This document shows positions 847 through 11,029 of a stretch of DNA of 64,000 nucleotides, piece after piece. Position 1 is the first letter of the stretch. Every line of letters starts with the position of its first letter. A program made the position numbers and the translations under genes. Source of the DNA: Deltaproteobacteria bacterium (GTDB lineage Bacteria; Desulfobacterota; Binatia; Binatales; Binataceae); the NCBI GenBank assembly GCA_021794015.1, contig JAJYRQ010000018.1, forward strand, positions 1-64,000, in the 5' to 3' direction. The notes beneath the pieces were generated by a model. That model searched no databases. It was not told the DNA's origin and saw only the letters and a program-made list of their open reading frames with translations.

Positions 847-1644
847 ATGGATTCGAGTCTTGAACAGGAATTGAATGCTCTCGAGAACCAGCTTGCGGCG
901 GCCTCCAGGGCCGCCGCATCTGCATTGGCTGAGCTCAAAAAGGCCCGGCGTAGCGCGAAGGCCGGCCAACTTCGCGATTTGAGTAGGAGCCTTGCCGAGG
1001 GACGTCGCGCTGCCAAGCGATTCTCGGAAGAATTGGCAACCGCCGACTCCTCGTGGAAGTTCGAACTCGAACCTTACTTTGCGGACGGGCGATATCTCAA
1101 AGAGCTGCTGCAGGAAGCCGAGCGCGCCGGCCTGGAACTGTTCGAGCGGGACGGCCGCCTTTATTGTTTCCCGATGTTGCTAGCCCTCTCGGCCAAAGAC
1201 GTGGCTGTGATGGTGGACCGTAAACCGGAACGCCGTCTGAGGCCGCGCGAATTGGTTAGGCTGCTGCTGGCACGCCAAAAGCGGCCACAGCGCTTTAACG
1301 GGCAGAAGCTGCTGGACACTCTATTCGACGCATACCGCCGGCTCGACCGCCGAGTGCTGCGTGATTGGACGCCGGAGGTCCGAGGCAATGGTCCCGTCGC
1401 GCCGCTAATCAAGATATATGAACTACTGACGCTCTTGCCGGGCTCTGAGCGCGAATATCCGAAGGAGGAATTCGCACGCGATATCCACCTGCTCGACAAG
1501 CAGCCCGATCTCCGTACCAAAGACGGGCGGCGGTTTGCCCTACCGGCCGCCACGGGTACGAAGGTCACTGGTCAGCGCCTAACCGTAGTCGATCAGCAGG
1601 GCTGCGAGAAGATTTACGTCGGCATCAGGTTCGACAAGGAGTGA
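847..1644 (+). CDS. Hypothetical protein with N-terminal coiled coil, first gene of ATPase/SNF2 cassette
   Basis: 265-residue protein of unknown function. I chose ATG 847 (MDSSLEQELN) over an upstream in-frame start at 829 because AAAGGT lies just before it and the coiled coil begins immediately. Residues 1 to about 70 are a Leu/Ala/Glu/Lys-rich helix typical of a coiled coil. The remainder is mixed alpha/beta with no motif I recognise. No signal peptide or membrane segment is visible. It ends 3 bp before the next gene, so it is very probably co-transcribed and co-functional with the three DNA-acting proteins downstream. Inference: a structural or targeting subunit of the cassette. Confidence 0.75.
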   Translation: MDSSLEQELNALENQLAAASRAAASALAELKKARRSAKAGQLRDLSRSLAEGRRAAKRFSEELATADSSWKFELEPYFADGRYLKELLQEAERAGLELFERDGRLYCFPMLLALSAKDVAVMVDRKPERRLRPRELVRLLLARQKRPQRFNGQKLLDTLFDAYRRLDRRVLRDWTPEVRGNGPVAPLIKIYELLTLLPGSEREYPKEEFARDIHLLDKQPDLRTKDGRRFALPAATGTKVTGQRLTVVDQQGCEKIYVGIRFDKE

Positions 1645-1647
1645 ACC

Positions 1648-2601
1648 ATGGCCGTGAAACTCAAAGAGTGGCTCGAACTGATCGACAAGGAATATCTCCG
1701 CGATTTCATAGTTAACGGTGGAGCGGCGGTCAAGTTTGTGGTCGCGCATGAGGCTAGCATTGGCGCCCTCCAGGCGCGCTTGATCGGTCAGGCCGCCGAG
1801 CACGGCCTTGTCTTTGCCGGTGTCAGCAGCGCCAACGTGAAGCTGCACATGATTCAGGACGTGTTCTTCGCGGTATCTCGCGGGGTCACCTGGGAGGCGG
1901 ATGCGCAGCGTTTCGTGGAACGGCTATTCCAACGCCAAGGATACGAGTGGCCCAGTCCGGGCGCTCCGGTCGCACTGACGGAGATTGCCGAGTCCAACAA
2001 GGTGGACGCTACTATCCTGCGCCGCGAATTCAACAGCTGGCTGACTGCCGACTTGATGAATGATCCCAGCATGGCGCAGGACTTTCGCATCGCCGTCATG
2101 CAGCTATGCCTCAATCGCCTGGCCCCGGCAGGGCATGGGGCTGAAGAAGTAGCACCAATCCTGGAATGGCTGCGGGGCGAGCTCCGGGTGCTCAGCCCGC
2201 TCAAGGCCGCGAACATCTACTCGCGGATCACTAGGCATAACGCGCGGGCGATGTTGCGGTCGCTGTGCCGATGGCTCTGGCTCGCCGGCCACAAGGGCCT
2301 TTTGCTGGCGGTCGATATTCGGCAGTTGACGCGGACTGCCGCGCTGGCGGCTGATGGTATGCGCTATACGTCGGGTGCGGTGATGGACGCTTACGAGGTG
2401 TTGCGCCAGTTGGTCGACGACGCCGATCTGTTTGAGCGCGTGTTGGTGGTGGTACTGGCCGACGATGTTTTCATTGGCGATGATCGCAAGCGGAGCGTCG
2501 ATGCCTATAGCGCCCTGAAAATGCGCATCTGGGACGATGTTCGAGCCCGGGCGCAGGCGAATCCTCTGGCGCCGATGGTGAGCATCGAAGCGGAGCATTG
2601 A
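1648..2601 (+). CDS. BREX-type (DUF2791-like) ATPase homologue lacking a P-loop
   Basis: 317 residues with a good ribosome site (AAGGAG) before ATG 1648. The C-terminal half resembles BrxC/BrxD-like (DUF2791) ATPases: residues about 190-260 run IYSRITRHNARAMLRSL, then a hydrophobic strand GLLLAVDIRQL where Walker B should be, then a DAYEVLRQLVDDAD helix, and near 270-295 VLADDVFIGDD and SALKMRIWDDV. The N-terminus has no GxxGxGK(S/T); the closest stretch is NGGAAVKFVV at 23-32. The Walker B glutamate is also replaced (VDI for DE). This suggests a catalytically inactive ATPase-fold partner of the intact ATPase encoded next. The fold assignment is inference from motif layout. Confidence 0.65.
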   Translation: MAVKLKEWLELIDKEYLRDFIVNGGAAVKFVVAHEASIGALQARLIGQAAEHGLVFAGVSSANVKLHMIQDVFFAVSRGVTWEADAQRFVERLFQRQGYEWPSPGAPVALTEIAESNKVDATILRREFNSWLTADLMNDPSMAQDFRIAVMQLCLNRLAPAGHGAEEVAPILEWLRGELRVLSPLKAANIYSRITRHNARAMLRSLCRWLWLAGHKGLLLAVDIRQLTRTAALAADGMRYTSGAVMDAYEVLRQLVDDADLFERVLVVVLADDVFIGDDRKRSVDAYSALKMRIWDDVRARAQANPLAPMVSIEAEH

Positions 2602-2622
2602 GGCGAAGGGGAGGATCCGGCC

Positions 2623-3867
2623 ATGAGCGACGAACGTAGGGCCATCGAGGCATTGCGTGCAGGCGTGCCTAATCGTGCAGCAATTCGACTGCTCGGTACC
2701 ACGGAAAATGAAATCAGCGAGCGCTTCGTGGAGAATCTCCAATTCTGCCGGCAGCGGCTCAAAGATGGGGAGCAGCCGACTGGCCAAGTCATCGCGGGCG
2801 GCTTCGGCGCCGGCAAGTCGCATCTGCTCGGATACCTGAAGGAACTCGCGCTGACCGAGAATTGTGTCGTCAGTTGGGTGGTCATCAGCAAAGAGACTCC
2901 GCTGTTTGATCTCAGGAAGCTCTATGTCTCCGCTGTTCGGAACGCCAGCGTGCCGGGCCTCAATGACGATGCGATGACGGCGGTTCTGGCGAAGCTCCGA
3001 CCTAAGAGCGAGGCGTATGATGACCTCTGCCAGTGGGCGCAAAGTGCGGAGGCCGGGCTTTCGCCGCTGTTCCCCGCCCTGCTTCATCTGTTTCCGCATC
3101 GATACACAAACCCGGAGCGGATACAGCAAATGGCCCGGTTTTTCTCAGGGGGCAAGCTCAGCTTTGCCAACGTCAGGCAATGGCTACGTGAGGTGGGGGC
3201 GGTGAAGCTCTTCGCGCTCAAGACTATTAGGCAGCCGGAGCTGACTCGCCAGCGGTTGCGGTTTGCGCCGCGCCTTATCGCGGCGGCGGGCTATAGCGGC
3301 TGGGTGCTATTGCTCGATGAGGTCGAGCTGATCGGCCGCTACAGTGTTCTGCAACGCGGGCGCAGTTATGCCGAGCTGGCTCGCTGGCTGGGCCTGGATG
3401 CTGAGGAAAGAGTGCCGGGCGTGGTCACCGTGGCGGCCGTTACCGATGACTTCACCGGCGAGGTAATCGGCAAGCGGCGCGACGATGAACAAGTGCCGCT
3501 TAAGCTGGCAAGCAGGAACGAGCGGAAAACCGCCGAGCGGGCCCAGCTTGGGATGGAAGTGCTGGAAAAGAAGCAGGTGTTGTTGCAGGCCCCAAATGCC
3601 GCGTCGTTGGAGGTCAGCCTCAACAAGATACGCGGGTTCTATCGCGACGCATATGGCTGGGATGCTGCCGGCGCTGACGTCGGTGAAATCACAGCAGCGA
3701 AGTCGATGCGCCAGTATATCAAGTCGTGGATCACGACCTGGGACCTTGAGCGGTTGTACAATAGCCGGCCCGAGATCGAAACGGAGAAGGTCGCTGCTGA
3801 CTACGAAGAGAACAAAGACATGGAGCTGATGGCCGCGCCGAGCGGCGACGACCCGGACGACGAATGA
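2623..3867 (+). CDS. BREX-type (BrxC/BrxD-like, DUF2791) P-loop ATPase
   Basis: 414-residue ATP-binding protein. Walker A is GGFGAGKS at about residues 59-66. Walker B is WVLLLDEVELIG at about 227-238, with D232 and E233. The spacing of about 165 residues and the following YAELARWLG helix fit the BREX-associated DUF2791 family, which supplies ATPase subunits to several phage-defence and DNA-processing systems. The C-terminal 20 residues are acidic. Ribosome site GGGGAGG precedes ATG 2623. It overlaps the SNF2 gene by 4 bp (ATGA at 3864-3867), indicating translational coupling. No BREX hallmark partners (PglZ, methylase, Lon-like protease) are in the cassette, so this is not a standard BREX locus. 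Confidence 0.8.
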   Translation: MSDERRAIEALRAGVPNRAAIRLLGTTENEISERFVENLQFCRQRLKDGEQPTGQVIAGGFGAGKSHLLGYLKELALTENCVVSWVVISKETPLFDLRKLYVSAVRNASVPGLNDDAMTAVLAKLRPKSEAYDDLCQWAQSAEAGLSPLFPALLHLFPHRYTNPERIQQMARFFSGGKLSFANVRQWLREVGAVKLFALKTIRQPELTRQRLRFAPRLIAAAGYSGWVLLLDEVELIGRYSVLQRGRSYAELARWLGLDAEERVPGVVTVAAVTDDFTGEVIGKRRDDEQVPLKLASRNERKTAERAQLGMEVLEKKQVLLQAPNAASLEVSLNKIRGFYRDAYGWDAAGADVGEITAAKSMRQYIKSWITTWDLERLYNSRPEIETEKVAADYEENKDMELMAAPSGDDPDDE

Positions 3868-5246
3868 GCGGTGCCACACAGACGGTCAGCAGCGCCGGGG
3901 AGTTCGGGATGGCGTGGCCGCACCCGCTTTTCCCGTACCAGCAGGCGGGCGTCCGTGCCCTGCTCGGTAATCCGTCGTTGTTGCTTGCCGACGAAATGGG
4001 GCTCGGCAAGACGATTCAAGCCATTGCCGCGCTACGCTGCCTGTTCGCCGCCGGTGCGGCTCGCGCGGCGCTGGTAGTGGCGCCCGCCGGCCTGATCCTG
4101 CAATGGCGGCGCGAATTTCGGCTCTGGGCGCCCGAGCTTCGTCTGCTCACCGTGCTTGGAACTTCCGGTGCAAGAGACGCAATATGGCGCGGCAAGGCCC
4201 AGGTGTACATCGCGAGTTACGAGACCGTACGGGCCGATCTTGGCGATCGTGGTCACGTCAATCGCGACTGGGATGTCGTGATAATCGACGAGGCGCAGCG
4301 AATCAAGAATCCGGACGCCGACATTTCTCGGGCAGTCAAGCGGCTCCCCCGCCGGCGCGGATGGGCGCTGAGCGGGACACCGCTCGAAAATAGTCTGGAT
4401 GACTTGGTTTCGGTCCTTGAGTTTGTCGCGCCAGGCCGCTTCCGTCCAGGCACTTTCGCCCGGGGGCTACGTCGCTTATTAGGTGAGGTGCAATTGCGCC
4501 GCCGGCGTGCCGACGTGCTGCCCGAGCTGCCTCCTAAGCTTCCGGTAGGGGTGCTGCTCGACCTCGAGGCGCGACAGCGGGCCGCTTACGACCGCGCCGA
4601 GCGGGAGGGCATCATCCGACTCACCGCGCTCGGGAGCGATCTCCGCATCAACCACGTGCTGGAACTTATCCTGCGGCTAAAGCAGATATGCAATTTCTGC
4701 CCGGAGACCGGCGCCTCAGCCAAGCTAATCGACCTTCGCGCCCGTCTGCACCAACTGGCGGCCAATGGAGAGCGCGCGCTGGTCTTTTCACAATTCGCCG
4801 CCGAGCCGTTCGGAGTCAAGCGACTTGCTCGAGAACTAGAGGAGTTACATCCACTGGTGCTTTCGGGTGACCTGGCCCTTGAAACCCGTGCCGCAGTGAT
4901 AAAGCAGTTCGAGGCGGAACATGAGCGCAAATTGCTGCTGCTGTCACTTCGCGTCGGCGGGGTCGGCTTGAATCTTACCGCAGCATCCTACGTGTTCCAC
5001 TTTGACCGTTGGTGGAACCCGGCAGTTGAAACGCAGGCGGAAGACCGCACCCACCGCATAGGGCAGGTGAGACCCGTTCATGTATACTCCTATCTCTGTT
5101 CCAACACGGTGGAGGAGCGAGTCGCAGATATCTTGGAGCAAAAGCGGCAATTGTTCGCTGATGTGGTGGATGGCGTGTCGCTGCGCCATATTCGGCGACT
5201 CGAGTTGGCAGATCTTCTCTGGGCGGTCTCGTTGCAGGCTGCGTGA
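3864..5246 (+). CDS. SNF2-family DEAD/DEAH-box helicase/translocase
   Basis: 460 residues, essentially a bare SNF2 motor. Visible motifs: Q-motif region FPYQQAGVRALL, motif I LADEMGLGKTIQAIA, motif II VIIDEAQRIKN, motif III LSGTPLEN, and in the second RecA lobe LVFSQFAAEPF, GGVGLNLTAASYVFHFD, WWNPAVETQAEDRTHRIGQ. All catalytic positions look intact. There is no SWIM, HNH or other accessory domain, so targeting is presumably supplied by the three upstream proteins. The family translocates on double-stranded DNA. This is the last gene of the cassette; about 590 bp without a recognisable gene follows. Confidence 0.93.
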   Translation: MSGATQTVSSAGEFGMAWPHPLFPYQQAGVRALLGNPSLLLADEMGLGKTIQAIAALRCLFAAGAARAALVVAPAGLILQWRREFRLWAPELRLLTVLGTSGARDAIWRGKAQVYIASYETVRADLGDRGHVNRDWDVVIIDEAQRIKNPDADISRAVKRLPRRRGWALSGTPLENSLDDLVSVLEFVAPGRFRPGTFARGLRRLLGEVQLRRRRADVLPELPPKLPVGVLLDLEARQRAAYDRAEREGIIRLTALGSDLRINHVLELILRLKQICNFCPETGASAKLIDLRARLHQLAANGERALVFSQFAAEPFGVKRLARELEELHPLVLSGDLALETRAAVIKQFEAEHERKLLLLSLRVGGVGLNLTAASYVFHFDRWWNPAVETQAEDRTHRIGQVRPVHVYSYLCSNTVEERVADILEQKRQLFADVVDGVSLRHIRRLELADLLWAVSLQAA

Positions 5247-5840: not shown

Positions 5841-6203
5841 GTGAGTGACGACAACCAAGTAATAGGCGTTGACAGTAGTTTTTCGGCAGCCTGCTATCGG
5901 TGCCCGAAATGCCGCTTCGAGGCTCCAGTCATTCCGAAGGCGGAGGAGTTGCATCGGGTGATTGCACTCGAGCTCATCAAGCGGTGGCGCCGGCTGAGCG
6001 GCAGCGAGGTGCGTTTTCTCCGCAAGCATGCGGGGCTGCCGGCCCGGCAGTTTGCCCGCCTGCCGGGCGTTACGCCGGAGCATCTCTCCCGCTTGGAAGA
6101 CGGCCATACGCAAGCGTTCGGCGAGGCTACCGACCGCTTGATTCGAACCGTCACCCTGAGCGCGGTCGATGGTCCGAAGGGCCGCGAGCTGCCTCGGATA
6201 TAG
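5841..6203 (+). CDS. MqsA-like zinc-knuckle/HTH antitoxin or regulator
   Basis: 120 residues from a GTG start (MSDDNQVIG). A CYRCPKC cysteine cluster near residues 18-24 is followed by the MqsA-type linker (IPKAEELHRVIALEL) and a C-terminal Cro/C1 helix-turn-helix (LRKHAGLPARQFARLPGVT, then HLSRLEDGHT). MqsA-family antitoxins bind zinc with the N-terminal half and operator DNA with the C-terminal half. Here only the second half of the zinc site is present, so the protein is N-terminally short. No RelE/MqsR-type toxin is adjacent; it is an orphan antitoxin or a stand-alone regulator. The ribosome site is weak (TTAAGG). Confidence 0.6.
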   Translation: MSDDNQVIGVDSSFSAACYRCPKCRFEAPVIPKAEELHRVIALELIKRWRRLSGSEVRFLRKHAGLPARQFARLPGVTPEHLSRLEDGHTQAFGEATDRLIRTVTLSAVDGPKGRELPRI

Positions 6204-6331: not shown

Positions 6332-6997
6332 CTAGTTGCAGGCGCACTCCGAGCAGAGCCGAAGTACCCTAAGACGCGCGGGAGAGCTGAAGACCGAGAA
6401 ACCCGACACGCCCGGGGCCTGCAATTGCGGCAGTCCCGGCTCGGCTTCGACCGCGGCCAGCGGCGGCTGCGGTGTGGGGAAGAACTCGAAGACCGGCGGA
6501 GGCATGAAGGAATTGACCGGGCGACGGTTGAAATTGTACGCGATGCACTGGTTGACCGCATTCTCGCGCGCGGTGAAATAGCTGCTCGCCGCAACGTGAC
6601 CCATCCAGCGTGAATAGGTGCCTGGGCCGAAGCAGGCGCAGCGAAAGAGCCGCGGCGTCGCCGCTGGCGCCGGCGCCGGCAAGAGCGCCGGCGCCGGCGC
6701 CAGCGGCGGGAGCGCTCCGAGCACCGGCGACGGCCCGGTAAGCGGCACTCCCGCTGGCGGCAGAAAACCCGGCGCCGGCGGCAGCGCCCCCGGCACAATA
6801 GCGCCCGGCGTCACTTCGCCCCCGGGAGGCAGCGGCGGGGCGGAAAGCGGCGGGGGCGGCGCCGCTCCCTGAAGCTGCGCCCAGGCGCTGTCTTTGGGCG
6901 CGGGCTGGTGGATCACCAGCGCGCCAAACAGCGCGCCCAGCAAAGTCAACGCTAAAAAACGCAGCGCGCGCCGCGTCGTGAACGCCTCGTTTCGCAT
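6332..6997 (-). CDS. Proline-rich exported or membrane-anchored protein, unknown function
   Basis: 221 residues. Residues about 9-31 (RRALRFLALTLLGALFGALV) form a signal peptide or anchor. Residues 38-110 are a Pro/Ala/Gly-rich low-complexity linker with PAP repeats. The C-terminal 100 residues form a small domain with cysteines (RCACFGPGTYSRWMGHVAA, then NQCIAYNFNRRP), and the protein ends CSECACN, a possible disulphide-bonded or metal-binding region. I do not recognise the family. It is divergent from the tolC pair, sharing the 6998-7175 promoter region. A perfect long inverted repeat lies inside the linker coding sequence (6659-6708). Confidence 0.6.
   Translation of the reverse strand: MRNEAFTTRRALRFLALTLLGALFGALVIHQPAPKDSAWAQLQGAAPPPPLSAPPLPPGGEVTPGAIVPGALPPAPGFLPPAGVPLTGPSPVLGALPPLAPAPALLPAPAPAATPRLFRCACFGPGTYSRWMGHVAASSYFTARENAVNQCIAYNFNRRPVNSFMPPPVFEFFPTPQPPLAAVEAEPGLPQLQAPGVSGFSVFSSPARLRVLRLCSECACN
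6659..6708. repeat. 22-bp perfect inverted repeat inside a coding region
   Basis: Positions 6659-6680 are exactly complementary to 6687-6708, with a 6-base AAGAGC loop. The arms are built from GGCGCC/GCCGGC units and encode the Ala-Pro repeats of the proline-rich protein. Such a hairpin would be very stable in mRNA. Confidence 0.85.
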
Positions 6998-7175: not shown

Positions 7176-9041
7176 ATGTTTGCGAAGCGACTGGCGATAA
7201 GGGCCTGCGCGCTCCTTGTTCCGTTGGTTTTGGCGCTCGCCGCGCCGCCGGCTAAAGCGCAGGTTGGCGCGCCGCCGGCCGCCGGCCAGACCGCAAGCGT
7301 GCCGATGATCACGCTCCAGGCGCCCAACTTGAACGTGCCGGCCAGCGCGGCCAATCAATTCGAGCACGGCGACAGCATCAAGTCGCTCCCGCAAATCCTG
7401 ATGCGCCAGTTTCGGCCGTTCGACGAGGTCGCCCCGGAAAGCATCATCAACCCCGCCTACCTGCGCACGCGCGACGGCACCGCCGAGCGGCTTACGCTCA
7501 AGCAGGTGATCTACCTGGCGCTGGCCAATAACCCCGGGGTCAAGGCGGCATGGCTGGGGCCGGTAATCGCGCAGGAAGGGGTGCGGCAGCAAAACGGCGT
7601 TTTTGACCTCGACCTTCAGAGCACGCTTGACAACATCAAGACCGTCACCCCGATAACGACGTCGATCGAGACCACCCAGGGCTTGGGGCTTTCTGACAAC
7701 GAGTTTGACTGGAACTTTTCCCTGGTGAAAATTCTCGCCTCGACCAACGGCACGCTTTCGCTCACCTTCAACAACGATTACCAGGCGACCAACAACCTGA
7801 CCCAGACGATAAATCCGTTTTACACGCCGACCATGGCGGTCTCGCTGGCGCAGCCGCTTTTGCGCAACTTCGGCTGGAAGTTTGCCGTGATCAACGTGCT
7901 GCTGGCCGAGTCGGCGCAAAAGCAGTCGCAAGCGGCGCTGGCGCAGCAGCTTTTCGATTTTACCCAGCGCGTGGCGCAGGAGTACTGGGCGGTGGTGCAG
8001 GCCGAGGAGAATCTGCGGGTTGCGCGCGAGGCGCTGCGCTTCAACCAGGACCTGGTGCGGCAAAACGAAATCAGCGTGCGGGTGGGCACGATGGCGCCGC
8101 TTGACCTGCTCGAGGCGCAGTCGGCCGCGGCCGCGGCCGAGGCCAACGTCTACACCGCCGAGGCGCAGGTGCACAACAGCCGCGCCGCGCTGCGCGAGGA
8201 CGTCATGCTCAACCCGCGCCATACCTTCATCCCGGCCGAGATCGTGCCTGCCGAAGAGCCCAACCCGGCGGCACCGGTCGACTTGAACGAGCAGCAAGCG
8301 CTCGAGCACGCCGTGCTCTACCGGCCTTCCCTTTCCGGGATGCGCGAGGCGATCCGCGGCGCGCTGCTCCAGGTGCGTTTCCAGGAGAACCAAACGCTGC
8401 CGCAGGTGAACATCCAGGGGCAGTATTCGATAAACTCGATGGCCGGGGGCGTACAGTGCGGTCCGACCTTCGGCGTCAAGCCGGGCAACTGCTTCAACCC
8501 GGCCCTGGGTTCGACCTCGCCCAACGGCTACGCCTTACCTTTTGCCGGCGGTTATGGGACCGCCCTCGACCAGCTTTTCGGCTTCAGCTACTACAATTAC
8601 GCGGCCGTTTTGAGCTATGAGCGGCCGATCGCGAACGCCGCTGCTCGAGCGGCGCTCGCCCAGTCGCGCATCGAGTACGAGCAGTTGCGCCTCCAGTACC
8701 GCTCGGGGCTTTCCCAGGCGGTCACCGAGGTGCAGAGCGCGCTTGCCAACCTGCGCGCCGACGCCGCCCGGGTCAAAGCCACGCATGAGGCGGCCGGCTA
8801 CGCCCGGCACGCGCTGCATGACGAGCAGCTTCGCTTCCGCGTCGGCATGGCGACCACTCACGACCTTCTCCAGTACCAGAGCGAGATGGTTTCCGCCGAA
8901 GGCAACGAGGTGCAGACCGGGATTGACCTGGAGAATGCGCGGGTCGCGCTTCGTCACGCGGACGGAACGCTGCTCAAGGAATTCGGCGTCGATTTCCAGC
9001 TTCAAGACCCGCACGAAAATCCCTGGTACGCCCGGTTCTGA
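7176..9041 (+). CDS. TolC-family outer membrane efflux protein (copy 1)
   Basis: 621 residues. Residues 1-29 are a classical signal peptide ending AKAQ. The mature protein has the two structural repeats of outer-membrane efflux proteins: a beta-barrel strand region with QPLLRNFGWK near residue 225, a long helical part (QRVAQEYWAVVQAEENLRVA), and a second repeat ending in AVTEVQSALANLRADAARV and RVGMATTHDLLQYQSEM. TolC trimers form the channel through which RND, ABC or MFS pumps expel substrates. Ribosome site GGGAGG precedes ATG 7176. No inner-membrane pump gene is adjacent. The paralogue follows 17 bp downstream. Confidence 0.92.
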   Translation: MFAKRLAIRACALLVPLVLALAAPPAKAQVGAPPAAGQTASVPMITLQAPNLNVPASAANQFEHGDSIKSLPQILMRQFRPFDEVAPESIINPAYLRTRDGTAERLTLKQVIYLALANNPGVKAAWLGPVIAQEGVRQQNGVFDLDLQSTLDNIKTVTPITTSIETTQGLGLSDNEFDWNFSLVKILASTNGTLSLTFNNDYQATNNLTQTINPFYTPTMAVSLAQPLLRNFGWKFAVINVLLAESAQKQSQAALAQQLFDFTQRVAQEYWAVVQAEENLRVAREALRFNQDLVRQNEISVRVGTMAPLDLLEAQSAAAAAEANVYTAEAQVHNSRAALREDVMLNPRHTFIPAEIVPAEEPNPAAPVDLNEQQALEHAVLYRPSLSGMREAIRGALLQVRFQENQTLPQVNIQGQYSINSMAGGVQCGPTFGVKPGNCFNPALGSTSPNGYALPFAGGYGTALDQLFGFSYYNYAAVLSYERPIANAAARAALAQSRIEYEQLRLQYRSGLSQAVTEVQSALANLRADAARVKATHEAAGYARHALHDEQLRFRVGMATTHDLLQYQSEMVSAEGNEVQTGIDLENARVALRHADGTLLKEFGVDFQLQDPHENPWYARF

Positions 9042-9058
9042 GGGAGCGTGAAGCGGGG

Positions 9059-11029
9059 ATGAGGATTGCGGCCGTGGCTGGATGGCGTGGCGCAGCGCAA
9101 CCGGCGCGGGCTGCCCGGCGTTGCGAAGCGGGCATTCTCCACGCCGGAACAGGGCGCCGTGCCGCGCGCCTGGCGCTGTTCGCGCTCATTGCATTTTCGG
9201 TTGCGATGCTTGGCGGGCGAGCCTTCGCCCAGAGTCCGGCTGCCACGCCTCAGGCTGCAACTGCTTCGGTCGGGCTTTTGCGCGGGCAGTCCTCACCGCT
9301 GTCGGCGCCGCCGCGGGTCGAGGTCACGACCCAGGACGCCAACCTTTTCGAGTACGGCGACAATCTCCGCTCGCTCCCGTCCATTCTGCGCCATCAGTGG
9401 ACGCCGCCGAGCGACGAGGCGGTGCCCGAAAGTTTCGTCAGCCTGCCCTACGTCCGCACCCGCGACAACCGGGTGGCCAGGCTTACGCTAAAGCAGGTCG
9501 TCTACCTGGCGCTGCTCAATAATCCGCAGGTGGAGCAGGCTCGGCTGGGGCCGCTGGCCGGAACCGAAGGCGTCAGGATGGTGAACGGCCAGTTCGACGT
9601 CGACTTTCTGGCCAACACGGGCGTGATCAACACGGTCGTTCCGATTCAGGCGATCTTCGACGTTTTTTCCGGTGTGGCGCTGCAGACCGAGACCTACGAC
9701 TGGGATTTCACCCTGAACAAGGTGCTGTCCACGACCAACGGCAGGATAACGCTCTTCTTCGACAACGCCCACGTTAACACGAACAACCTTTTTGTCGATG
9801 TGAATCCCGTCTATGAGCCCAACCTCGGCATCACGCTGTTTCAGCCGCTGTTGCGCAATTTCGGCTGGAATTTCTCCCAGATTTTCGTAAAGTTCCTGGA
9901 ATCCTCGCAGAAAGAGTCGCAGTGGGTCTACGCCCAGGCGCTGACCGACACCATCCAGCGCGTCGGCAACGATTACTGGAACGCCGTTCTGGCCCGGGAG
10001 AATCTGCGCGTCTACCAGGAGACGCTCAAGTTCGACCGTGACCTGGTGCGCCAGGATGAGGCCGCGCTGCGCGTCGGTACGATTGCGCCCATCGACCTCG
10101 AGGAGGCCCGGGCCGCAGCCGCCACCGCCGAAGCTAACGTCGCTTCGGCCCGCGCCGGCGTGGAAATCGCCGGCTCGATCCTGACCCAGGACGTGGTGCT
10201 CAACCCTGACAAGACATTTCTGCCGCGTACTGTTCAACCGGCAGATCTGCCCACGCCCAACGAACCGCTCAACCAGGAGGAAGAGCGCTCGATTGAGGAC
10301 GCTATCGTCTATCGTCCGTCGCTCAACGCCATGCGCGAGGCGGTACGCAACGCGCTCCTGGAGGTCAAGTACCAGACCAACCAGCTCCTGCCCGACCTCG
10401 ATATTGTGGTGCAACTCGGGGTCAACGCGATGGCCGGGCCGCCCATCTGCCTGCCGCCTTTCGGCAGCGCCGGCAAGCAACAGACCAACTGCACGGTCGC
10501 CGGAGGGCCGGGCTTCGCGCTGGCGCCCTTTGCCGGCGCCTATGGCGCGGCCCTGAACAACATGTTCGGCCTGCACTATTACGAGTACTCGGCACTGCTC
10601 TTCTTCGAGATGCCGCTCGACCTCGCCTACATCAAGGCGAACGTAGGACAGGCCAAGGCCTATTACGAGCAGCTACGGGTGCAGTACCGCCAGAGCGTCG
10701 AACAGGCGATCGTCGAGGTGCAGACGGCGCTTAGCGATCTCGGCGCCGATCTCCAGGCGGTCAAGGCCGCGCGCGCAAGCGTCCGCTACGCCCGCCGCGC
10801 GCTGCAGGACGAGCAGGCCAGGTTTAGGGTCGGGATGGCAACCTCGCACGACCTCCTGCAGTACGAAAACCAGCTCGTCGCCGCTGAAGGCAACCTGCTG
10901 CAAACCGAAGTCGCCTTGGAAAACGCCAAGCTTGCCCTGCGCCACGCTGACGGAACGTTGTTGCGCAGCCTCCAAATCGACTTCCAGGTGCAGAGCCCGC
11001 GCGAGCGGCCGTGGTACAGCCGCTTCTGA
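9059..11029 (+). CDS. TolC-family outer membrane efflux protein (copy 2)
   Basis: 656 residues, a clear paralogue of the preceding gene: the same landmarks recur in order (EYGDNLRSLPSIL, LTLKQVVYLALLNNPQVE, LFQPLLRNFGWN, RVGTIAPIDLEEARAAA, RVGMATSHDLLQYENQL, and a C-terminus ending RPWYSRF against NPWYARF in copy 1). The signal peptide is internal to the predicted start: the hydrophobic core lies at about 38-54, before GGRAFAQ, after an unusual 35-residue Arg/Ala-rich leader, so the true start may be further in. Tandem duplication of tolC with no pump suggests partners encoded elsewhere. Confidence 0.9.
   Translation: MRIAAVAGWRGAAQPARAARRCEAGILHAGTGRRAARLALFALIAFSVAMLGGRAFAQSPAATPQAATASVGLLRGQSSPLSAPPRVEVTTQDANLFEYGDNLRSLPSILRHQWTPPSDEAVPESFVSLPYVRTRDNRVARLTLKQVVYLALLNNPQVEQARLGPLAGTEGVRMVNGQFDVDFLANTGVINTVVPIQAIFDVFSGVALQTETYDWDFTLNKVLSTTNGRITLFFDNAHVNTNNLFVDVNPVYEPNLGITLFQPLLRNFGWNFSQIFVKFLESSQKESQWVYAQALTDTIQRVGNDYWNAVLARENLRVYQETLKFDRDLVRQDEAALRVGTIAPIDLEEARAAAATAEANVASARAGVEIAGSILTQDVVLNPDKTFLPRTVQPADLPTPNEPLNQEEERSIEDAIVYRPSLNAMREAVRNALLEVKYQTNQLLPDLDIVVQLGVNAMAGPPICLPPFGSAGKQQTNCTVAGGPGFALAPFAGAYGAALNNMFGLHYYEYSALLFFEMPLDLAYIKANVGQAKAYYEQLRVQYRQSVEQAIVEVQTALSDLGADLQAVKAARASVRYARRALQDEQARFRVGMATSHDLLQYENQLVAAEGNLLQTEVALENAKLALRHADGTLLRSLQIDFQVQSPRERPWYSRF

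What the first reader, a model, noticed from the sequence alone, without database searches (positions are those of the whole stretch)
847..5246. Compact four-gene cassette: coiled-coil protein, P-loop-less ATPase, BREX-type ATPase, SNF2 helicase
Seen: four co-directional genes with gaps of 3 and 21 bp and one ATGA overlap. Known: DUF2791-type ATPases occur in BREX and other defence or DNA-processing loci, and SNF2 motors occur in several anti-phage systems; I recall tellurite-resistance-linked operons pairing such ATPases with SNF2 helicases. Inference: the combination without PglZ, methylase, nuclease or Ter genes is a minimal DNA-translocating complex, possibly an undescribed defence module. 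No effector nuclease is visible, so the 265-residue protein would have to recruit or act as one.
Basis: partly seen in the sequence, partly recalled or inferred. Interest (0 to 1): 0.8.

Follow-up and report, generated by a model that had tools for sequence, protein, structure and literature searches.

The report
Mobile ATPase-SNF2 operon, probably phage defence
A four-gene operon that moves between bacteria pairs one working and one dead ORC-like ATPase subunit with a DNA motor; its closest relatives carry a DNA-cutting domain on the same motor, so it is probably an undescribed anti-virus system, although no activity has been shown.

Summary
Genes A (847-1644), B (1648-2601), C (2623-3867) and D (3864-5246) have the stated gaps and ATGA overlap. 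Nineteen other loci carry the same operon, in the order A-B-C-(E)-D. B and C are both PF10923 (BrxC/BrxD, ORC/Cdc6-type AAA+). B lost Walker A (17 of 17) and the C-terminal lid but keeps a YxALxxR motif at the expected arginine-finger position. C has Walker A (19 of 19) and never that motif. B and C are fused in one locus. They look like obligate partners sharing one ATP site (inferred). D is an intact, bare SNF2 motor; in six sister loci it continues into an Mrr restriction nuclease with catalytic residues in place. The operon is sporadic, horizontally transferred, low in GC3, under purifying selection, and beside defence genes in at least three loci. More distant cousins (homologous A, two live ATPases, DEAD helicase) resemble Shango and BREX BrxD-BrxHI, but the cassette is neither. 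Best reading: a reduced, nuclease-free member of an undescribed AAA+/motor defence family. Defence itself is inferred.

The parts
847..1644 (+). Gene A, 265 aa adaptor: N-terminal helical hairpin (res. 5-69) plus conserved alpha/beta C-terminal half
   Evidence: no Pfam/NCBIfam/PADLOC family; no PDB fold match better than E 2; C-terminal part homologous to the A protein of tandem-ATPase operons (hhalign 97.7%, E 2e-12)
1648..2601 (+). Gene B, 317 aa degenerate BrxD/ORC-Cdc6-type AAA+ subunit without Walker A/B and without the C-terminal helical lid
   Evidence: PF10923 9e-11; 0 of 17 B proteins have Walker A; B clade 100/99 grouping with active ATPase-1 proteins; AF2 pLDDT 81, pTM 0.83
1717..1770 (+). 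Stretch of B (res. 24-41, GGAAVKFVVAHEASIGAL) that aligns with GGAKVRFINGDYGDGKTHF of the active ATPase-1 cousins: P-loop lost in place, preceding GGAxVKF motif kept
   Evidence: Alignment
2488..2526 (+). B residues 281-293, KRSVDAYSALKMR: conserved YxALxxR motif between strands 4 and 5 (putative arginine finger)
   Evidence: 16/16 complete B, 15/15 ATPase-1, 3/3 Shango SngB-like; 0/19 C, 0/16 ATPase-2. BrxD's arginine finger lies at the base of strand 5 (PMC12839542). Role inferred
2623..3867 (+). Gene C, 414 aa active BrxD/ORC-Cdc6-type AAA+ ATPase
   Evidence: PF10923 6e-20; far below the curated BrxD equivalog cut-off (NF033438 55 bits vs 350)
2797..2820 (+). Walker A of C, GGFGAGKS (res. 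59-66)
   Evidence: Present in 19/19 C proteins
3307..3327 (+). Walker B of C, LLLDEVE (res. 229-235)
   Evidence: D232 and E233 invariant
3864..5246 (+). Gene D, 460 aa bare SNF2 translocase core; ATGA overlap with C; lacks the C-terminal Mrr nuclease of sister loci
   Evidence: PF00176 1e-47, PF00271 3e-18; motifs I, II, III, VI intact; only SNF2 of this type found in the genome at E 1e-20
3990..4013 (+). SNF2 motif I, DEMGLGKT

Best explanation
The cassette is a horizontally transferred four-gene operon that encodes a DNA-handling complex of ORC/helicase-loader type. C binds ATP. B, a paralogue that has lost its own P-loop, Walker B and lid, supplies the arginine finger that completes C's ATP site, so B and C act only as a heteromer. 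A is the adaptor or sensor that brings this AAA+ pair to its target. ATP turnover by B-C loads or activates the SNF2 motor D on invading DNA. In the sister subtype the same motor carries an Mrr restriction nuclease and restriction is direct. In the window's subtype the nuclease is absent, and the motor would act by translocating on, stripping or blocking foreign DNA, or would recruit a nuclease from elsewhere. SHOWN by sequence: conserved operon; shared ancestry of B and C with BrxD-like ATPases; complementary motif loss in B and C; B-C and E-D gene fusions; intact SNF2 motor; SNF2-Mrr in sister loci; horizontal transfer; purifying selection. INFERRED: the shared ATP site, motor loading, and the defence role.
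For: Operon conserved in order and strand in the window and 19 other loci. B and D co-occur in the class: 7 genomes with both, 2 B only, 1 D only, 133 neither; Fisher p 1.4e-9, genomes treated as independent. B and C are each one clade, 100/99, with complementary motifs in all members. B-C fused as one 740-aa ORF in L007. E fused to D in L063/L061 (hhalign 96%, E 4e-9). SNF2 fused to Mrr_cat (E down to 5e-25) in L040, L042 and L043, with homologous Mrr ends in L044, L060 and L065, all with GxD...QCK in place. Cousin operons with homologous A, two live ATPases and a DEAD helicase of the BrxHI/SngC group, one type with a weak Cas4-like segment and an SF1 helicase. Horizontal transfer: cassettes of the window's own family are not one clade (AU p 7e-104) and the window copy nests with Alphaproteobacteria; relatives have an rluD-like gene directly beside the gene next to the cassette; GC3 0.68-0.74 against a window median of 0.81. 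Defence genes adjacent: TIR-APAZ/short pAgo plus PDC-S24 Fic (L009), Hhe/PDC-S37 (L007), SLOG/TIR/ThsB_TIR (L064). Selection: dN/dS 0.06-0.31. Nearest tested relative, Shango, is antiphage (PMC10250203).
Against: No functional data. D is dead or missing in L006, L008, L041, L062 and L064 while A-B-C persist, so the motor is not always needed. The window has no nuclease and its genome has no Mrr domain. Several cassettes sit among ordinary housekeeping genes, and enrichment of defence neighbours was not tested statistically. No hit in the phage, plasmid or viral-contig collections (one query each). The arginine-finger assignment rests on position and conservation, not on a structure of the complex. 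AF2 models used only 5-6 sequences, and PDB matches for B are weak (best E 0.02).
Confidence: 0.55

Rival explanations
1. A-B-C is a self-sufficient AAA+ machine (remodeller or sensor), and D is an optional attachment that comes and goes like other auxiliary effectors.
For: A-B-C without an intact D in L006, L008, L041, L062 and L064; genomes G431 and G395 hold A-B-C and have no SNF2 match at E 1e-20; A-B-C of L006/L008 still under purifying selection, dN/dS 0.19-0.31. Tandem ATPases without an adjacent helicase in five cousin loci.
Against: Where D is present it is adjacent, in order and itself under purifying selection (0.06-0.17); L006/L008 values are the highest measured, so decay after loss of D is possible.
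Confidence: 0.2
2. A DNA repair, replication-restart or transcription-recycling module (ORC-like loader plus RapA-like motor) with a housekeeping role.
For: ORC/Cdc6-type ATPases and SNF2 motors serve such roles; some cassettes lie between housekeeping genes (murA/hisG-like in L006/L008, ribD/ribE-like in L061/L063, names read from sequence).
Against: Found in only 9 of 148 genomes of the class, horizontally transferred, different sites within one family, Mrr nuclease in the sister subtype.
Confidence: 0.15
3. The window copy is a reduced, non-functional remnant of the SNF2-Mrr system.
For: No Mrr domain on D or elsewhere in the genome, and no E gene.
Against: Four intact ORFs; dN/dS 0.10-0.17 against L009 for B, C and D; the bare SNF2 form recurs in L004, L007 and L009.
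Confidence: 0.08
4. A fragment or subtype of BREX or Shango.
For: PF10923 ATPases; ATPase-helicase pairing as in BrxD-BrxHI and SngB-SngC.
Against: No PglZ in the genome; C and B score 55 and 34 bits against the BrxD cut-off of 350; no TerB domain in A, while true Shango loci of the same phylum are recognised by the same libraries; the helicase is SNF2, not DEAD/Ski2-like.
Confidence: 0.02

Closest known systems
Shango (SngA-SngB-SngC; PMC10250203)
   Same: Adaptor gene, PF10923 BrxD-like ATPase and helicase in one operon; SngB has the same YxALxxR motif as B
   Different: One ATPase carrying both P-loop and YxALxxR; TerB-containing adaptor not detectably related to A (hhalign 0%); DEAD-type helicase instead of SNF2
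BrxD-BrxHI pair of Type-2 BREX (PMC12839542)
   Same: ORC/Cdc6-type ATPase tightly linked to an SF2 helicase, for which a helicase-loader role has been proposed
   Different: Part of a larger methylase/PglZ system; single ATPase; Ski2-like helicase
BrxB / PglW C-terminal inactive STAND domains (PMC12839542)
   Same: Inactive ORC-Cdc6/STAND-like domain with degenerate Walker motifs and no C-terminal helical bundle, like B
   Different: B groups with BrxD-like ATPase-1 proteins and gives no BrxB match in PADLOC
Tandem-BrxD operons with DEAD helicase seen here (L051, L069-L072, L081; L048, L073)
   Same: Homologous A, then two PF10923 ATPases, then a helicase; YxALxxR in ATPase 1 only
   Different: Both ATPases have a P-loop; helicase of BrxHI/SngC type, in one form fused to a weak Cas4-like segment and an SF1 helicase
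Type I Zorya ZorD (SNF2 helicase with Mrr-like nuclease)
   Same: Best PADLOC match of D (2.5e-78); SNF2 plus Mrr parts as in the sister subtype
   Different: D reaches 156 bits of the 1500 required by NF041790; no ZorA, ZorB or ZorC genes seen beside the cassette

Membership tests
BREX | PglZ phosphatase/nuclease present | tested here: not met
   No PF08665 match in the genome (94.9% complete); the control rang in 2 genomes
BREX | BrxD at NCBI equivalog level | tested here: not met
   C 54.8 and B 34.3 bits against 350
BREX | Methyltransferase PglX/BrxX in the locus | tested here: inconclusive
   None recognised by eye among the downstream ORFs to ~12 kb, but no profile search was made for it and the upstream side is cut by the contig end
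Shango | TerB-domain protein SngA | tested here: not met
   A has no TerB or SngA match; hhalign of A against SngA 0%. The genome-wide TerB_N search had no ringing control and is inconclusive by itself
Shango | DEAD/DEAH helicase SngC | tested here: not met
   D is SNF2; SngC is not among its 25 best PADLOC matches
PF10923 (BrxC/BrxD ORC-Cdc6-type AAA+) | Score over the curated cut-off | tested here: met
   B 41.7 and C 72.0 bits against 22.2
PF10923 (BrxC/BrxD ORC-Cdc6-type AAA+) | Walker A/B and arginine-finger motif in the same chain, as in BrxD/SngB | tested here: not met
   Motifs split between C and B
Type I Zorya | ZorD at equivalog level | tested here: not met
   156 bits against 1500
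Type I Zorya | ZorA, ZorB and ZorC in the operon | tested here: not met
   A, B and C match none of them in PADLOC
Anti-phage defence system (general) | Protects cells against phage | not testable with these tools
   Needs a phage challenge
Anti-phage defence system (general) | Sporadic, horizontally transferred, among defence genes | tested here: inconclusive
   Sporadic and transferred: met. Defence neighbours in at least 3 loci, but no statistical control

The most novel reading that the evidence does not exclude
An undescribed family of antiphage systems in which a half-dead heteromeric ORC-like AAA+ (ATP on C, arginine finger on B) loads an SNF2 translocase onto invading DNA. It exists in a restriction form (SNF2-Mrr) and in a nuclease-free form that defends by translocation alone.
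Probability: 0.35. Interest if true: 0.75.

Novelty: new variant of a known kind. Interest (0 to 1): 0.62.

Why it matters
BrxD and SngB are ORC/Cdc6-type ATPases in defence systems whose role is not worked out; a helicase-loader role has only been proposed. This family shows an apparent series from one self-sufficient ATPase (SngB), to two live ATPases with the YxALxxR motif on only one of them, to a pair in which one subunit has lost nucleotide binding altogether, as in eukaryotic ORC and clamp loaders. The split of motifs makes the loader idea directly testable with two point mutants (C K65A, B R293A). The recurrent swap of the motor (DEAD, DEAD plus SF1, SNF2-Mrr, bare SNF2) on a conserved A-ATPase-ATPase base shows which part is the platform and which the effector.

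Tried and rejected
(1) BREX remnant: no PglZ, BrxD scores far below the equivalog cut-off. (2) Shango variant: no TerB, different helicase; real Shango loci (L078, L080) served as positive controls. (3) A as hidden nuclease: no family in three libraries, no PDB fold match better than E 2; the MutH match is noise (prob 0.08). (4) Spread by phages or plasmids: no hit for B in phages or viral contigs, none for C in plasmids. (5) Nuclease in trans in the window genome: no Mrr_cat match; other nuclease families were not searched. (6) Clean empty site: relatives show the rluD-adjacent junction, but in the window genome uvrA-rluD lies on another contig (C47) and the cassette contig starts 846 bp before gene A, so insertion boundaries could not be fixed. 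(7) Literature: five searches found no description of the cassette; the held library lacks most subscription journals, and the classic paper on Ter-linked operons was not read.
Full report
WHAT IS THERE. Pfam puts both B and C in PF10923 (BrxC/BrxD), over the curated cut-off, and D in SNF2 plus Helicase_C; A matches nothing. PADLOC and NCBIfam give only weak BrxD/SngB matches for B and C, and general SNF2 matches (ZorD, DpdE, a pilus-regulator and the SCO1167 helicase) for D, all far below the curated cut-offs where such exist.

IT IS A CONSERVED OPERON. A scan of genome contigs with B gave six loci, and searches of the phylum and class samples gave more. With the window, 20 loci hold the cassette: L004-L009, L040-L045 and L060-L066 (L009 and L067 are the same contig). 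Order and strand are constant as far as the contigs reach. The alphaproteobacterial copies are 39-62% identical to the window and L009 83-91%; the rest are more distant. In the class, B and D co-occur in 7 genomes, with 2 B-only, 1 D-only and 133 neither (Fisher p 1.4e-9, relatedness ignored). In L007 B and C are one 740-aa protein. In L063 and L061 the N-terminus of D is homologous to E, a ~188-aa protein that other loci encode between C and D (hhalign 96%, E 4e-9). Such fusions point to physical partnership.

COMPLEMENTARY ATPASE SUBUNITS. Alignment of 70 PF10923 proteins shows that B has lost the P-loop in place: GGAKVRFINGDYGDGKTHF in active cousins corresponds to GGAAVKFVVAHEASIGAL in B, with the preceding motif kept. 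B also ends before the C-terminal helical lid, at about 317 aa against about 415-445. No B has Walker A (0 of 17); every C has it (19 of 19). Conversely Y-x-A-L-x-x-R between strands 4 and 5 is present in 16 of 16 complete B, 15 of 15 first ATPases of tandem operons and 3 of 3 SngB-like proteins, and absent from 19 of 19 C and 16 of 16 second ATPases. [quoted passage not shown] I infer that B supplies the arginine finger for ATP bound by C. B and C are each a single clade (100/99), B near first ATPases; the deeper branching is weak, with long branches. The AF2 model of B (pLDDT 81, pTM 0.83, five sequences) is alpha/beta; PDB matches are weak but include AAA+ proteins such as HslU, Cdc6, ORC and IstB.

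THE MISSING NUCLEASE IS IN THE SISTERS. In L040, L042 and L043 the D protein continues past the SNF2 core into Mrr_cat (PF04471, E 3e-22 to 5e-25). Homologous ends are present in L044 (whose D is split into two frames), L060 and L065, with TRD(G/R)G(V/I)DLIA...(I/V)QCKN, the Mrr-type GxD...QxK catalytic set. Helicase motifs of the window D are intact. The window's subtype (window, L004, L007, L009) has a bare SNF2 core, and neither the window genome nor G424 (L009) has any Mrr_cat match. D is absent or a remnant in L006, L008, L041, L062 and L064; G431 and G395 have no SNF2 match at E 1e-20. L005 and L066 end before D and cannot be judged.

THE WIDER FAMILY. Loci L051, L069-L072 and L081 hold a homologous A (hhalign 97.7%, E 2e-12), two live ATPases and a large helicase; that of L051 matches BrxHI and SngC and has a weak PD-(D/E)XK match, and that of L081 is a 1955-aa protein with a DEAD helicase, a weak Cas4-like segment and an SF1 helicase. 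L048 and L073 hold a shorter version, and L047, L049, L076, L077 and L083 have the ATPase pair alone. L078 and L080 are true Shango (SngA and SngB at E < 1e-70 in both, SngC in L078; TerB_N and TerB_C in L078), and L079 looks the same, which shows that the tests can recognise it.

MOBILITY AND SELECTION. Concatenated A-B-C places the window and L009 among Alphaproteobacteria, away from L062 of the same family; one clade for that family is rejected (AU p 7e-104). In four relatives (L104-L107) the gene homologous to window 6332-6997 lies directly beside an rluD-like gene with no cassette, and L009's genome G424 has the same arrangement at a locus apart from its own cassette. In the window genome that rluD-like gene is on contig C47, so boundaries are unknown. 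GC3 of the four genes is 0.68-0.74 against a window median of 0.81. dN/dS is 0.06-0.31 in four pairs. Neighbours include TIR-APAZ/short pAgo with a PDC-S24 Fic protein (L009), Hhe/PDC-S37 (L007) and SLOG, TIR and ThsB_TIR genes (L064); other loci show toxin-antitoxin genes or none, and enrichment was not tested.

HOW IT MOST LIKELY WORKS. B-C form a heteromeric ORC-like ATPase, A is the adaptor or sensor, and the ATPase loads or activates D on foreign DNA. With Mrr attached, DNA is cut; without it, the motor must obstruct the DNA or recruit another effector. The operon and motif facts are shown; the heteromer, loading and defence are inferred. Overall confidence is 0.55. A platform (A-B-C) with an exchangeable motor is the strongest rival and partly overlaps.

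STATUS. Not BREX, Shango or Zorya by the tests listed. I found no description of it in the papers I could search, which are incomplete. I call it a new variant of a known kind: PF10923 ATPase plus helicase defence-type modules.

Noticed in passing
L051, L069, L070, L071, L072, L081: Operons with homologous A, two live PF10923 ATPases and a 1109-2034 aa helicase; the L081 helicase combines DEAD helicase, weak Cas4-like segment and SF1 helicase. I found no name for this system.
   Followed up: partly
L047, L049, L076, L077, L083: Tandem PF10923 ATPases with no adjacent helicase; the second ATPase has an extra N-terminal stretch. Possibly a non-defence role.
   Followed up: no
L125:9705-11468: G434 (same family as the window) has a D homologue 84% identical from residue 47 on, in a 587-aa frame with a different N-terminus and without A-B-C; a SIR2-looking gene lies nearby (name from sequence only).
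   Followed up: partly
window 5841-6203: 120-aa protein with CPxC-like and HTH regions resembling an MqsA-type antitoxin, just downstream of the cassette and without an obvious toxin partner.
   Followed up: no
L060:4224-7891: DUF4258/MqsA-type toxin-antitoxin pair and a large cyclase-like protein lie between C and E, interrupting an otherwise compact cassette.
   Followed up: partly
L006:10300-10440 and L008:10400-10640: D survives only as a remnant around helicase motif I, while A, B and C remain intact under selection.
   Followed up: yes
window 7176-11029: Two tandem TolC-like outer-membrane proteins (name from sequence), conserved with the upstream 221-aa gene in the family.
   Followed up: partly
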